Source of the DNA: Mesonia profundi
GTDB taxonomy: Bacteria; Bacteroidota; Bacteroidia; Flavobacteriales; Flavobacteriaceae
Assembly: GCF_031085155.1 (NCBI RefSeq)
Contig: NZ_JAVHUL010000032.1
Span: 1 to 38,127, forward strand
Reading direction: 5' to 3'
DNA: 38,127 nt
Shown: piece by piece, positions 108-16,377 of the stretch
How positions within the stretch are numbered: the first letter of the stretch is position 1
Layout: every line of letters begins with the position of its first letter
Notes under the pieces: generated by a model
Databases searched by the model: none
What the model saw: only the letters and a program-made list of their open reading frames with translations
Told to the model about the DNA's origin: nothing
Made by a program: the position numbers and the translations under genes

Positions 108-401
108 TTAGATATCGTCGTTACCTTCAACTTCGTCTTCTACATCTTTTGCAGCTTTATCGATAGCATCACCTGTATCGTTAGCAGCATCTTCAATAGC
201 GTCACCCGTGTCGTTAGCGGCATCTTCGATAGCATCACCTGCATCGTTAGCAGCGTCTTTAATATCGTCACCTACTTCGTTCATTTCACTTTCTGCGTCA
301 TCTACGTTTAATTCAATTTCTTTTTTGTTTTCTTCTCTACAAGAAGTAAAAGCGGTTGAAACTGCAAATAACATCGCAAGCATGATTACTGATTTCTTCA
401 T
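108..401 (-). CDS. Small lipoprotein with acidic 11-residue repeats
   Basis: The ATG at 401 was chosen over the one at 458 because it starts directly with a lipoprotein signal (MKKSVIMLAML..., lipobox AFTSC, Cys21); the extra 19 upstream residues would bury it. The 97-residue product is strongly acidic after Cys21. Residues 49-92 are four 11-residue units: DAANDAGDAIE, DAANDTGDAIE, DAANDTGDAID, KAAKDVEDEVE. The 11-residue period is typical of amphipathic helices such as those in LEA-type proteins, but I do not assign a function. It probably sits anchored to an envelope membrane. It lies 31 bases downstream of another small lipoprotein gene on the same strand, so the two probably form an operon, ended by the hairpin at 12-43. 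Confidence 0.75.
   Translation of the reverse strand: MKKSVIMLAMLFAVSTAFTSCREENKKEIELNVDDAESEMNEVGDDIKDAANDAGDAIEDAANDTGDAIEDAANDTGDAIDKAAKDVEDEVEGNDDI
126..257 (-). repeat. Imperfect 33-bp tandem repeats inside the lipoprotein gene
   Basis: Four consecutive 33-base units encode residues 49-92 of the small lipoprotein. The two central units are nearly identical at DNA level (GATAGCATCACC / AATAGCGTCACC type variants on the plus strand). Because 33 is divisible by three, copy-number change would lengthen or shorten the helix without a frameshift. Confidence 0.7.
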
Positions 402-11642: not shown

Positions 11643-12766
11643 ATGAAAACTAAATTTATTCCATTTTCACTACCTCACTACCTCACTACCTCACTACCTC
11701 GCTACTGCTGGTCTTGATTTTAAGCTTGTCAAGTTGTGAAAAAGATGACTCTTTTAAAGACCAAGCAGAAGACTCGCAAATAAATGCTACAGAAAGTGGA
11801 TTTTATACAGAATATGTAGAAAGCTCAGCCATCTCAAAAAATGCAAATTTGACAAAACAGCTTTCTAAGTCTTTAACCACCCCAGAACATGTAATGGGTA
11901 AAGGAGAGCGAACAGAGTTGGCCCTACATAACCAAATAGCCAAATACATTAGTAGTGAAGATGGTAGTTACCATTCGTACACCTTTCATGTTTCCAATAC
12001 ACCAGATAGTGTAGGACTAGAAAACATTTTATACGCCTCCTCAGATGGAGGTAAATCTTATAGGATCTATTTATTGGAATATCCCTATACCGAAGAGTAT
12101 ATGATTAATACTTATGGTTTTGGCTCATTTGATTTTAAAGGAAACGATATTATCTACTACCCACTTAACGAAGAAGCAAAAGTTAATACTGTTGATTGTT
12201 TAATCATGCAAGAGACTTCTTGCATGTATAACCTTCACAATGGGGGCTATTTTCCAGACGGACTACAGTGTGATGGTTATGCCACATCCTCCTTTTTAGA
12301 TTGTTCTATAAGCTCTAGCGGAGGTCCTAGTGGTGGGGCAACTGGCCCTTACATCCCTTTTAACCCATCTCCTTTTAATGGTGGTGGTACTGGAACCGGC
12401 GGTGCAGGAAACCCATCTCCAGGAACAGAGGCAACTTCACCAATTTATCTACCCATGAAAAGCGTAATAAGAAAGTTGGCGCCTTATGAAGATGAAGCAG
12501 AAGAAGATCATATAAAACAATGCTTGTCCAATAACTCTATGTTGACGATCCCATTAGACATGTTTTTGGGAGAAAACCCTACGCCAAAGCAAGAAGCTTT
12601 TGGGAAAGAGGCTATAAAAGCTAAGTGTGAGAATTCTAATGTAGATATTGATTTTGAGGATAGAATTTTTGAATTATTTGAAGGAACAAATGCAGATTGC
12701 GTACACGACAAACTAAAAGAAATAGACTTAGAAAATCCAAATATAACTTTGTATCACATAATTTAA
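11643..12766 (+). CDS. Large lipoprotein, N-terminal part; out of frame with its ATG
   Basis: The only plausible ATG (11643, MKTKFIPFSLPHYLTTSLP) reads into TGA at 11715-11717. The body of the protein, in another frame, is open from about 11654 and carries a perfect lipoprotein h-region and lipobox (SLLLVLILSLSSC) after an 8-bp repeat tract. Removing one repeat joins them. The visible body (350 residues from the TTG at 11714) has a Ser/Gly/Pro-rich linker near 200-240 and four or more cysteines, and ends at TAA 12764-12766. One missing T in the run at 12762-12764 would continue it into the next frame. It probably belongs to a flavobacterial family of large exported lipoproteins; function unknown. 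It forms one gene with 12697-13470 in its repaired form (606 residues). Confidence 0.65.
11668..11699 (+). repeat. Four tandem copies of CACTACCT in signal-peptide codons
   Basis: Four perfect 8-base copies run from 11668 to 11699, followed by a degenerate copy CGCTACTG. Eight is not divisible by three, so each copy gained or lost shifts the reading frame. Three copies (or six) would place the ATG at 11643 in frame with the lipobox; the four copies here do not. Confidence 0.9.
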
Positions 12767-13470
12767 ACAATTTTAATGATGCAACAGAAAACTGGTTATT
12801 TTTTGAAGTAGGAGAAATTGGCGACGATTGGGGGCAAACAAGTGGTTATGTTGGGAATAGTGCTAATAGTATTCTTCCAGATGCTTATACAATTGTTATT
12901 GATAACGACTTAAACCAAAATGGGTCTAATCTTGCAATTATGGCAACTTTAGCTCATGAGCTAATTCATGCATACATGTTTGATACCCTTAGTGATGCGG
13001 GAGTGATTACATTTGACCAAAATACAGGAGTGCCCAAGTTAAATGTAATTTGTCAAGATGGGACTAATTATAACAATTTAAATTTGAACACCCTTTCTAC
13101 TTCTGAAAGGTTTGCAGCATTAATTTGTGCCATGGAAGCTAGTAACACGTTAACCCCTCAATGGTCGCACGATTTATTTAATGAAAATGTTTTTTCAGTA
13201 ACCACCTACCAACAACAATTGGCAGATTTTATTTTTGAAAATCATGATTGGAATAGTGAAGATTTTGATTTTAAAAATGATATGATTTCTTATTTTGGAT
13301 CTAACTGGAAACTAAAAACGGCAGAAGCTTGTAGCTGGATTGGATTAACTGATACAACAGAGTATAGTTCTTATAGGGATTCTATTACGAATCCGATGAT
13401 TAAAACTGGATTAATTCAACTTGCAGAATATAGAAATTTTGTAAATGATGCTAATTTTAATTGCAATTAA
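12697..13470 (+). CDS. C-terminal HELIH domain of the large lipoprotein, frameshifted off
   Basis: This open frame has no good start; the nominal one is a TTG with a basic, non-protein-like beginning. From about 12765 it reads as real protein: NNFNDATENWLFFEVG, then a stretch ending ATLAHELIHAYMFDTL. HELIH is an HExxH-type zinc-protease signature, though no third ligand is certain. Adding one T to the run at 12762-12764 gives ...YHIILNNFNDATENW..., joining it smoothly to the upstream body. I infer a single metallopeptidase-like lipoprotein gene broken by a one-base loss. The downstream small gene starts one base after its stop, so they are probably one transcript. Confidence 0.6.
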   Translation: MRTRQTKRNRLRKSKYNFVSHNLNNFNDATENWLFFEVGEIGDDWGQTSGYVGNSANSILPDAYTIVIDNDLNQNGSNLAIMATLAHELIHAYMFDTLSDAGVITFDQNTGVPKLNVICQDGTNYNNLNLNTLSTSERFAALICAMEASNTLTPQWSHDLFNENVFSVTTYQQQLADFIFENHDWNSEDFDFKNDMISYFGSNWKLKTAEACSWIGLTDTTEYSSYRDSITNPMIKTGLIQLAEYRNFVNDANFNCN

Positions 13471-14014: not shown

Positions 14015-14040
14015 ATCTCACTACAGAATGGTATTGTTTT

Positions 14041-14109
14041 GCAGAAGAAGCTTTTAAGACTAAGTGTGATGGAGGGGATGTAGACTTCCCCTTTTTAGGA
14101 CGGTGCTAA
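14041..14109 (+). pseudogene. Fragment of a paralogue of the large lipoprotein
   Basis: This stretch reads AEEAFKTKCDGGDVDFPFLG then a stop. It parallels QEAF(GKEAI)KAKCENSNVDIDF of the lipoprotein (about 12589-12657), with a seven-residue gap. At DNA level the shared blocks are AGAAGCTTTT and CTAAGTGTGA. It has no start and no flanking family sequence, so it looks like leftover DNA of a second copy. The match is short and could be chance. Confidence 0.45.
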
Positions 14110-14142: not shown

Positions 14143-15111
14143 TTACTTCTTCTTAAAAATATAGTTTTTATAAAATCCCTGATCGTCCATAAAAAATTCT
14201 TCAATTTTTAAACCAGCTTCATCTGCGAGCCACTCTACGATTTTATCATCATATTTTTGGGAGATCTCGGTATGAATGCTTTCCCAAGCTTTAAAATGAA
14301 CTTGGAGTTGAAGCTCATTAATCCTTACTTCTTGTTCTTTTAAACTCACCAAAAAGCTCTTGGCAGTTCCTGTTTCGGGGTCATAAGTTTCCCAATGTTT
14401 AAAGCTTTCAACGTCAAAATTAGCATCTAATTCGCTATTGATTCTTACCAAGAGGTTTTTATTAAAACGATCTGTGATTCCTGCGGGATCGTTGTAGGCG
14501 TTTAGAATAGTTTCAGGATTTTTCTTTTGATCAAAGCCCATAAATAACATATCTTCCTCACTCATCGCTTGCTGAATGTTTTTCAAAAAGTCGATAGCCT
14601 TACCGTGTCTTAAGTTCCCAATATTGGAACCTAAAACCATAATGGCTTTTTTTCTAGTGTTATAATCGGCTAAACTTTCTAAGATCTTAAAATAAGAACC
14701 TTGTAGCGTCTTTACAGAAACTTCAGGAATCTCCTTTTTTAAAGAGCTTTCTAAATCATCCAAGCTATGCTGACTAATATCTACGGGGCAATATTTAAAA
14801 TCGTAATTTTTATCTGCTAAATGTCGCAATAAAACTTTTGTTTTCTTACCGTCGCCAGCGCCCAGTTCAATCAGGTCAAAACCGTCTTTTCCATTAAAAT
14901 ATTCCGCGATAAGCGGAGTATGTTTTTTAAGAATATTAAACTCACAATTGGTGAGGTAATATTCGGGCATATTCATAATGTCCTGAAATAGTTTATCTCC
15001 TTTTTGATCATAAATAAATTTAGAAGACAAGTATTTGGGATTGTTGCTAAGTCCTTCGCGCACATCTTGTGCAAACTCCGTAGAATAAGTAGTCGTGTTT
15101 TCTTTTTTCAT
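14143..15111 (-). CDS. egtD: L-histidine N-alpha-methyltransferase
   Basis: EgtD trimethylates histidine with three SAM to give hercynine, the first step of ergothioneine synthesis. The 322 residues match EgtD. SAM-binding motif LIELGAGDGKKT is at about 80-91; GSNIGNLRHG, YNDPAGITDRFNKNLL and a late HTEISQKY (the Glu/Ser pair of the histidine pocket in mycobacterial EgtD, from memory) follow. It starts 16 bases after egtB on the same strand, so the two form an operon in reaction order reversed (oxygenase gene first). No egtA, egtC or clear egtE is adjacent. Confidence 0.93.
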   Translation of the reverse strand: MKKENTTTYSTEFAQDVREGLSNNPKYLSSKFIYDQKGDKLFQDIMNMPEYYLTNCEFNILKKHTPLIAEYFNGKDGFDLIELGAGDGKKTKVLLRHLADKNYDFKYCPVDISQHSLDDLESSLKKEIPEVSVKTLQGSYFKILESLADYNTRKKAIMVLGSNIGNLRHGKAIDFLKNIQQAMSEEDMLFMGFDQKKNPETILNAYNDPAGITDRFNKNLLVRINSELDANFDVESFKHWETYDPETGTAKSFLVSLKEQEVRINELQLQVHFKAWESIHTEISQKYDDKIVEWLADEAGLKIEEFFMDDQGFYKNYIFKKK

Positions 15112-15127
15112 AAATTCTAATAGAAAA

Positions 15128-16294
15128 TTATTTGGTTAATCTAAGTCCGTTAAACTGCCATCTTAATTGAGGGTGGAAGAAGTTTCTATAGGTGATTCTC
15201 GTGTGGTTCTTTGCGGTGGCTAAGGAAGCTCCTCTCAGCACTTTTTGATTCACCATAAATTTCCCATTGTATTCTCCTATGGCTCCGTCTGGTTTTTTAT
15301 AATTAGGATAAGGAGAATAGGCGCTTTCTGTCCATTCCCAGCGTTCTCCCCAGTTAAATTTATGCTGTGCAGCTTCCCATTCAAATTCGGTAGGAAGGCG
15401 CATTTTTTTCCATTGGGCGAAAGCAAAAGCTTCATAGTAAGAAATATGGGTAAGCGGAGCTTTTTCCGTTAACGGAATTAATCCGCCAAGGGTATATTGA
15501 TACCATTTCCCATCTACTTGATGCCAGTAGGCAGGCGCTTGAATATTTTCTTGATTAATCCAATCCCAAGCTTCGGCGTGCCATAAAAGTACATTTTTAT
15601 AACCACCAGCTTCCATAAACTCTAGGTATTCTTTATTGGTAATAAGTTTGTTAGAAATAAAGAAATCGTTGAGGTAAACTTGATGTACGCCGCGTTCATT
15701 ATCGTAGCAAAACTCATAGGTGTTGCTATGACCAATAGTATATAAACCTTTGGGAATGCTTAACCATTTTTGAGTGGAGGTATCAATTTCATTTTCTTGA
15801 AAATTCTCATCGTAAACAGGAAGTAAGGGGTTGTTTCCTAAAATATACTTAATATCGGTAAGCAATAATTCTTGGTGTTGCTTTTCGTGATGAATGCCTA
15901 TTTGAATTACATCTTCTAATTCTTTACTGATATCGTTTTCGGTTAAGAAATTAATCAGCATTTTGGTGACATAAGCTCTGTAGTCATAAATCTGTTTTAC
16001 CCCAGGCCTAGATAAATTTCCCCTGTTGGTTCTCACCACTTTTTTGCCTACACTTTCGTAATAGCTATTAAAAACAAAAGCGAAATTTTTATCGAATAAT
16101 TCGTAGCTGGGAGCATTTTCTTTTAATACGAATTGCTCAAAAAACCAGGTGGTATGTCCCAAATGCCATTTAGGCGGAGAAACAAAGTCTGCGGGTTGAA
16201 TTACATAATCTTCAATTTGCAAAGGTTTACAAATCGATTCGGTGGCATTCCTAGTCGCAATTAATTCTTCTAATAAACTTGGAGAAATTTTCAT
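15128..16294 (-). CDS. egtB: EgtB-type hercynine sulfoxide synthase
   Basis: This non-heme iron oxygenase couples hercynine to cysteine or gamma-glutamylcysteine using O2. I start at 16294 (MKISPSLLEELIATR); the longer frame adds ten unlikely residues. The 388 residues contain a DinB-like N-terminal part with the iron ligands in PPKWHLGHTTW (H44/H47 region) and the diagnostic HX3HXE at 136-142 (HEKQHQE), then a formylglycine-generating-enzyme-like sulfatase-modifying domain from about 165 to the end (FISNKLITNKEYLEF, RLPTEFEWEAA, RGASLATAKNHTRITYRN). The fused methyltransferase of OvoA is absent, and egtD supplies it separately. Which thiol donor is used cannot be told from the sequence. Confidence 0.92.
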   Translation of the reverse strand: MKISPSLLEELIATRNATESICKPLQIEDYVIQPADFVSPPKWHLGHTTWFFEQFVLKENAPSYELFDKNFAFVFNSYYESVGKKVVRTNRGNLSRPGVKQIYDYRAYVTKMLINFLTENDISKELEDVIQIGIHHEKQHQELLLTDIKYILGNNPLLPVYDENFQENEIDTSTQKWLSIPKGLYTIGHSNTYEFCYDNERGVHQVYLNDFFISNKLITNKEYLEFMEAGGYKNVLLWHAEAWDWINQENIQAPAYWHQVDGKWYQYTLGGLIPLTEKAPLTHISYYEAFAFAQWKKMRLPTEFEWEAAQHKFNWGERWEWTESAYSPYPNYKKPDGAIGEYNGKFMVNQKVLRGASLATAKNHTRITYRNFFHPQLRWQFNGLRLTK

Positions 16295-16377
16295 AGATGT
16301 GTTTTTTAAACAGCTTCCTCCCAAAGTTACACAATTTTAAACAGCAAAATCTTTAAGCTATGTTAAGGCCAAAAAAA

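What the first reader, a model, noticed from the sequence alone, without database searches (positions are those of the whole stretch)
11643..11750. 8-bp repeat switch in a lipoprotein signal peptide
Four perfect CACTACCT copies lie between the ATG and the hydrophobic core of the signal peptide. With four copies the ATG frame meets TGA at 11715-11717. Deleting one copy gives MKTKFIPFSLPHYLTTSL joined directly to LLVLILSLSSC, an ideal lipoprotein signal. Each unit shifts the frame by two, so copy number would toggle expression (3 or 6 ON, 4 or 5 OFF). This is the layout of known slipped-strand contingency loci, here on an exported metalloprotease-like lipoprotein of a flavobacterium.
Basis: partly seen in the sequence, partly recalled or inferred. 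Interest (0 to 1): 0.8.

Follow-up and report, generated by a model that had tools for sequence, protein, structure and literature searches.

The report
Repeat-switched toxin-like lipoproteins in flavobacteria
A short repeat right after the start codon puts this exported, toxin-like protein out of frame, and a number of relatives carry different repeats at the same place, which suggests that these bacteria switch such proteins on and off by repeat slippage.

Summary
In detail: four perfect CACTACCT copies (11668-11699) follow ATG 11643; the ATG frame stops at 11715-11717; the lipoprotein frame is open downstream. Chance does not explain the array.

Relatives support a slippage switch. Two paralogues in the genome carry another 8-bp unit, x4 and x5, at the same place; one unit is their only indel in 622 aligned bases. 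Of 196 relatives examined (182 with a lipobox), 20, in 16 genomes, have an array between ATG and lipobox with units of 4, 5, 7, 8 or 14 bp; 17 of the 20 are out of frame, against 14 of 162 without one.

The gene is not simply a metalloprotease lipoprotein. Its family looks like polymorphic toxins: shared lipoprotein N-terminus, exchangeable C-termini, a small ORF behind, an orphan C-terminal cassette. Change of copy number within a strain could not be tested; toxicity is inferred. New variant of a known kind.

The parts
11643..11717 (+). ATG frame as it stands: 24 codons and TGA (out of frame with the lipoprotein)
11667..11700 (+). perfect 8-bp tandem array, four full CACTACCT units at 11668-11699
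11654..12766 (+). lipoprotein frame, stop to stop; signal core and lipobox, Cys codon 11735-11737
11735..12664 (+). conserved N-terminal domain and linker shared with paralogues on C25 and C39
12697..13470 (+). second ORF in another frame: zincin-like C-terminal part with HELIH (12955-12969); 41% identity over 190 residues to the C-terminus of L037
13472..13972 (+). small ORF starting 2 nt after the stop of the second ORF, with a signal-peptide-like start (MMKQLIIIF); immunity-like by position only
   Evidence: listed from the earlier ATG 13445
14017..14109 (+). short open stretch that resembles the linker of the family (EEAFKTKCDGGDVDF), perhaps a remnant of a C-terminal cassette
   Evidence: compared by eye only

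Best explanation
A repeat-based ON/OFF switch in the signal-peptide start region of a member of a polymorphic-toxin-like lipoprotein family. Gain or loss of repeat units by slippage at replication would change the frame between ATG and lipobox, so that only part of a population makes and exports the lipoprotein. The shared N-terminal domain would anchor or deliver, the exchangeable C-terminus (here zincin-like) would be the toxic part, and the small ORF behind would be the immunity protein. Shown: array, frames, recurrence at the same place with different units, whole-unit differences between close copies, exchangeable C-termini, downstream ORFs, constraint on frames that are out of reach of their ATG. 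Inferred: slippage in living populations, surface display, toxicity, immunity. The window copy has a second frame break (lesion or assembly error) and may be non-functional whatever its array; the C25 and C39 paralogues have none after the lipobox.
For: Array and frames. Paralogues C25 and C39: same place, other 8-bp unit, 5.25 and 4.25 copies, single indel of one unit in 622 aligned bases with 34 substitutions. C26 and C39 units differ at two positions through the full copies (by eye). 20 of 182 lipobox members with start-proximal arrays; 17 of 20 out of frame against 14 of 162 without array, p 7e-13, relatedness not corrected. G319 pair differs by two ACAAA units; G517 and G957 copies have 5 and 8 AAAC units with near-identical flanks. 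Open frames of 535 and 618 codons, 0 of 200 shuffles stop-free, dN/dS 0.25-0.42. SusD control: 1 of 30 with an array, a frame-keeping 9-bp one, against 11 of 35 in the first family set, p 0.004. Family anatomy; Tox-MPTase3 in L024.
Against: No reads or strains of one species: copy-number change within a strain not seen. Second frame break in the window copy. Arrays are a minority: 6 of 104 lipobox members in the g127 set, 0 of 23 members examined in family f5. Against SusD the contrast weakens in the wider sets: 14 of 78, p 0.063; 20 of 182 against 0 of 30, p 0.085. 14 members without an array are also out of frame or lack an ATG, so some copies are simply broken. One further array inside a signal region, L204, has a 9-bp unit, x2.0. 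The window's own C-terminal part matches no named toxin family above cut-off.
Confidence: 0.72

Rival explanations
1. Decay: the genes are dying pseudogenes and the arrays are passive relics that happened to expand at broken starts.
For: All three copies in the genome are out of frame, the window copy has a second break, and some relatives have stops or lost starts.
Against: C25 and C39 stay open for 535 and 618 codons, dN/dS among the three N-terminal parts is 0.25-0.42, three array-bearing relatives are in frame, and 19 of the 20 arrays lie in genes whose match is recorded without internal stops; out-of-frame state goes with arrays (17 of 20 against 14 of 162).
Confidence: 0.15
2. The switch is real but the protein is not an interbacterial toxin: a variable surface antigen, phage receptor or secreted peptidase with a partner gene behind it.
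For: No toxicity data; the window proteins match no named toxin or defence family above cut-off; surface-exposed proteins are the usual targets of phase variation (PMC3711429, passages).
Against: Exchangeable C-termini, an orphan cassette, ORFs close behind the stop in 71 of 80 members and Tox-MPTase3 in L024 fit polymorphic toxins.
Confidence: 0.2
3. The frame change is corrected during expression (ribosomal or transcriptional slippage at the array), so the gene is made at a low constant level.
For: Most arrays sit out of frame in the assemblies (17 of 20) while the downstream frames stay open.
Against: Units of 4, 5, 7, 8 and 14 bp with no shared slippery motif; 148 of 162 array-less relatives have an ordinary in-frame ATG.
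Confidence: 0.06

Closest known systems
Slipped-strand contingency loci with start-proximal repeats (Haemophilus, Neisseria; e.g. PMC2651432, PMC5084427, search listings only)
   Same: Short tandem repeats in the 5' coding region with units that change the frame; copy number would give ON and OFF
   Different: Here the repeats sit in the signal peptide of a polymorphic-toxin-like lipoprotein family, with different units in different lineages; switching itself not observed
Polymorphic toxins with lineage-specific N-terminal domains: MAFB-N, Microscilla-N, Amoebophilus APD1/APD2 (PMC3482391, section 37 read)
   Same: Conserved N-terminus behind a signal peptide or lipobox, polymorphic C-termini, standalone cassettes
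   Different: N-terminal domain matches no Pfam or NCBIfam model here; no repeats of this kind described in the section read
SitA lipoprotein toxins of myxobacteria (PMC5562445, passages read)
   Same: Lipoproteins with diverse C-terminal toxin domains and an immunity gene directly downstream
   Different: SitA has the sitB gene upstream and is moved by outer membrane exchange; the window gene follows a TPP-enzyme gene; delivery here is unknown
Tox-MPTase metallopeptidase toxins (Pfam PF15639 for type 3)
   Same: L024, a relative with a short ACAAA array, ends in Tox-MPTase3 (E 6.4e-10); the window part has HExxH
   Different: The window C-terminal part does not match this family; only SprT-like below cut-off (E 0.0044, 17.3 bits against 25.6)

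Membership tests
Repeat-driven phase-variable (contingency) locus | Perfect short tandem array in the 5' coding region, beyond chance | tested here: met
Repeat-driven phase-variable (contingency) locus | Unit length changes the reading frame | tested here: met
   8 bp here; the 20 counted arrays have units of 4, 5, 7, 8 or 14 bp; excluded: L204 9 bp x2.0, L236 9 bp x3.1 before the ATG, L115 12 bp x2 with no ATG found, L097 lipobox misplaced
Repeat-driven phase-variable (contingency) locus | Unit number varies among cells or strains | tested here: inconclusive
   Paralogues and copies in related species differ by whole units; no reads or strains of one species available
Repeat-driven phase-variable (contingency) locus | Reversible ON/OFF expression | not testable with these tools
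   needs culture or reads
Polymorphic toxin system | Conserved N-terminus with exchangeable C-termini | tested here: met
Polymorphic toxin system | Adjacent immunity gene | tested here: inconclusive
   ORF of 60 codons or more starting within -60 to +25 nt of the stop in 71 of 80 rows (counted by eye); immunity function not shown; no family match for the window one
Polymorphic toxin system | Standalone C-terminal cassettes | tested here: met
   L009:7672-8487 on C39 matches the C-terminus of C25
Polymorphic toxin system | Recognised toxin domain | tested here: inconclusive
   Tox-MPTase3 over cut-off in one of 20 relatives scanned (L024); window part only below cut-off
MafB (Neisseria) | MafB N-terminal domain | tested here: not met
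   no Pfam match of the N-terminal part
SitA lipoprotein toxins | Upstream sitB and delivery by outer membrane exchange | not tested
   no search for SitB or TraA was made; upstream neighbour is a TPP enzyme

The most novel reading that the evidence does not exclude
Flavobacteria keep a shuffled set of polymorphic lipoprotein toxins whose exported form is switched by start-proximal repeats that arose repeatedly with different units, so that at any time only some cells are armed while the downstream immunity gene need not follow the switch: phase-variable kin competition, with most assemblies caught in the unarmed state.
Probability: 0.45. Interest if true: 0.75.

Novelty: new variant of a known kind. 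Interest (0 to 1): 0.62.

Why it matters
Repeat-driven phase variation and polymorphic toxins are both known, but nine searches of the held library listed no report of a polymorphic toxin family with recurrent frame-shifting repeats in its export signal; subscription journals and preprints were not covered. If true, it gives a simple, testable way in which such weapons are bet-hedged in a large group of environmental bacteria, and it warns that gene callers would mis-start or drop these genes because most array-bearing copies are out of frame in the assemblies.

Tried and rejected
No result or weak: Pfam, NCBIfam and PADLOC on window proteins apart from weak SprT-like matches; contig scan with P0001 (none); contig scan with A2 gave one distant relative, from Flavobacterium sp. 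JAS, array-less and in frame; plasmid collection with one N-terminal query (none); genus of G332 (only G332 itself among 2); structure models of the N-terminal domain and of the second ORF (mean pLDDT 65.4 and 64.0) and Foldseek against the PDB (none with E <= 0.001); PDB sequence search (best hits E 0.002 biofilm surface protein, 0.005-0.007 Spartan for A4; papain 0.011 for A3).

Rejected: chance; start downstream of the array; a general trait of lipoprotein genes (SusD control: 30 of 77 matches tested, those with loci; in about eight of these rows the Cys picked by the script is not a convincing lipobox). A second control, 156 ATG-started ORFs of 150 codons or more in all loci then held, had 2 arrays, one a family member (L047), one the SusD gene L073; that scan cannot see out-of-frame genes.

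Rows and counts: members examined = 38 of 39 matches (orphan cassette left out), 5 new of 8, 43 of 54 (7 already seen, 4 fragments left out), 109 of 131 (7 already seen, 15 partial or late-starting left out), and L050; 196 in all, 182 with a lipobox by script. At least L142, L149 and L183 seem to have a lipobox that the script missed. Script hits not counted as start-region arrays, by hand: L097 (lipobox misplaced; its real signal is array-less and in frame), L115 (12 bp x2, no ATG found), L204 (9 bp x2.0; it does lie in the signal region, so with it 20 of 21 units would not be multiples of three), L236 (9 bp x3.1, before the ATG). L024 (12-nt ACAAA array, under the 18-nt limit), L018 (T9 tract) and L043 (Cys misplaced by the script) stay among the array-less, out-of-frame rows. 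In frame means an ATG at least 14 codons before the Cys; GTG and TTG were not counted.

Full report
What is in the sequence. At 11643 an ATG opens a frame of 24 codons that ends at TGA 11715-11717. Between the ATG and the hydrophobic core lies a perfect 8-bp array of 34 nt (11667-11700; CACTACCT x4 at 11668-11699). The lipoprotein frame, with LLVLILSLSSC and Cys codon 11735-11737, is open from 11654 to 12766 and has no ATG of its own upstream. It is the only perfect array of 18 nt or more (period 4-30) in the window; 100 Markov resamplings gave 0.52 per window, the longest 26 nt.

The part with HELIH (12955-12969) is in another frame (ORF 12697-13470) than the lipoprotein ORF. This second ORF is 41% identical over 190 residues to the C-terminus of a relative in G275 (L037), where one open frame spans both parts. 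So the window copy has a second frame break, a true lesion or an assembly error, and the array alone does not decide whether the whole protein is made.

Same-genome relatives. The N-terminal part has paralogues on C25 (78% identity) and C39 (66%), and a further piece on C39. Both paralogues have an 8-bp array at the same place, unit TACATCGC, 5.25 and 4.25 copies. Over 622 aligned bases they differ by 34 substitutions and one indel, a single 8-bp unit. The C26 and C39 units differ at two of eight positions, through the full copies (by eye), as repeated loss and gain of units would produce. All three genes are out of frame with their ATG. Yet after the Cys the C25 and C39 frames run 535 and 618 codons without a stop (0 of 200 shuffles each), and dN/dS among the three N-terminal parts is 0.25-0.42. 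That speaks for a protein that is made at times.

Relatives elsewhere. A four-sequence profile found the domain in 28 of 397 genomes of the family; a 25-sequence profile found it in 5 of 6 genomes of genus g107, 29 of 395 drawn from the order and 86 of 398 of genus g127. I examined the 5' ends of 196 members, 182 with a lipobox by script. Twenty carry an array of at least 18 nt between ATG and lipobox, in 16 genomes: 8 bp (three in G000), 14 bp (G009), 5 bp (G121, G319, G1058), 4 bp (G375, G517, G641 twice, G957, G1000 twice, G1141) and 7 bp (G377, G246, G332, G275, G932). None of these units is a multiple of three; L204, 9 bp x2.0, was left out and would be the exception. Seventeen of the 20 are out of frame and three in frame (L047, L150, L243), against 14 of 162 members without such an array (Fisher p 7e-13; relatedness not corrected). 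Random unit numbers would put two thirds out of frame; 17 of 20 is no clear excess (p 0.06).

Unit number changes between relatives. Besides C25 and C39, two paralogues of G319 that are identical from the array onwards differ by two ACAAA units, and copies in two genomes of genus g127, G517 and G957, have 5 and 8 AAAC units with nearly identical coding flanks (counted by eye). In G641 two copies differ by one base in the AAAC array and by two in a T tract, which is not whole-unit change. Reads or strains of one species were out of reach, so switching within a population is inferred.

Controls and results against. SusD-type lipoprotein genes from 18 of the same genomes: 1 of 30 tested (of 77 found) has an array, 9 bp x2.2, which keeps the frame, against 11 of 35 in the first family set (p 0.004). 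In wider sets the contrast weakens: 14 of 78 against 1 of 30 (p 0.063); 20 of 182 against 0 of 30 frame-shifting arrays (p 0.085). Arrays are a minority trait: 6 of 104 lipobox members in the g127 set and 0 of 23 members examined in family f5.

What the protein is. Members share a lipoprotein N-terminus of roughly 230-300 residues; their C-termini fall into several groups that do not match each other. In 71 of 80 rows an ORF of at least 60 codons starts within -60 to +25 nt of the stop; in the window one with MMKQLIIIF at its start begins two bases behind the stop of the second ORF. C39 has an orphan C-terminal cassette homologous to the C-terminus of C25 (L009:7672-8487; dN/dS 0.16). Of 20 relatives scanned, one, L024 in G319, ends in Tox-MPTase3 (E 6.4e-10, over cut-off), a domain defined in polymorphic toxins (PMC3482391, passages). 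The window and C25 zincin parts match SprT-like only below cut-off. This is the anatomy of a polymorphic toxin system; toxicity and immunity are not shown.

Compared with what is known. Zhang et al. describe N-terminal domains behind a signal peptide or lipobox with polymorphic C-termini (MAFB-N, Microscilla-N, APD1/2; PMC3482391, section 37 read); SitA are lipoprotein toxins of myxobacteria (PMC5562445, passages). The present family works like these, with an N-terminal domain that no Pfam or NCBIfam model matched here. Nine library searches (listings, plus passages of PMC3848433, PMC4287609 and PMC3711429) showed no report of a polymorphic toxin family with such repeats in its export signal.

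Verdict. Observation confirmed. Interpretation partly supported: a slippage switch is the best reading, on a family of toxin-like lipoproteins rather than a plain protease, in a copy with a second break.

Noticed in passing
L009:7672-8487 (G000:C39): Orphan C-terminal cassette with HEYIH, homologous to the C-terminus of the C25 paralogue, behind another toxin-like gene and its small downstream ORF.
   Followed up: partly
window 14017-14109: Short open stretch behind the immunity-like ORF that resembles the family's linker; perhaps a remnant of an older cassette.
   Followed up: partly
L018 (G155) and L136/L138 (G641): Homopolymer T tracts in the signal core (T9 in L018, out of frame; T7 and T9 in the G641 pair), a possible second kind of slippage site.
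   Followed up: partly
window 14143-16324, - strand: Histidine-specific methyltransferase and FGE-sulfatase/DinB_2 genes side by side; ergothioneine-type pair by recall.
   Followed up: no
window 158-273: 33-bp imperfect tandem repeat (3.4 copies) in a short open frame near the window's start.
   Followed up: no
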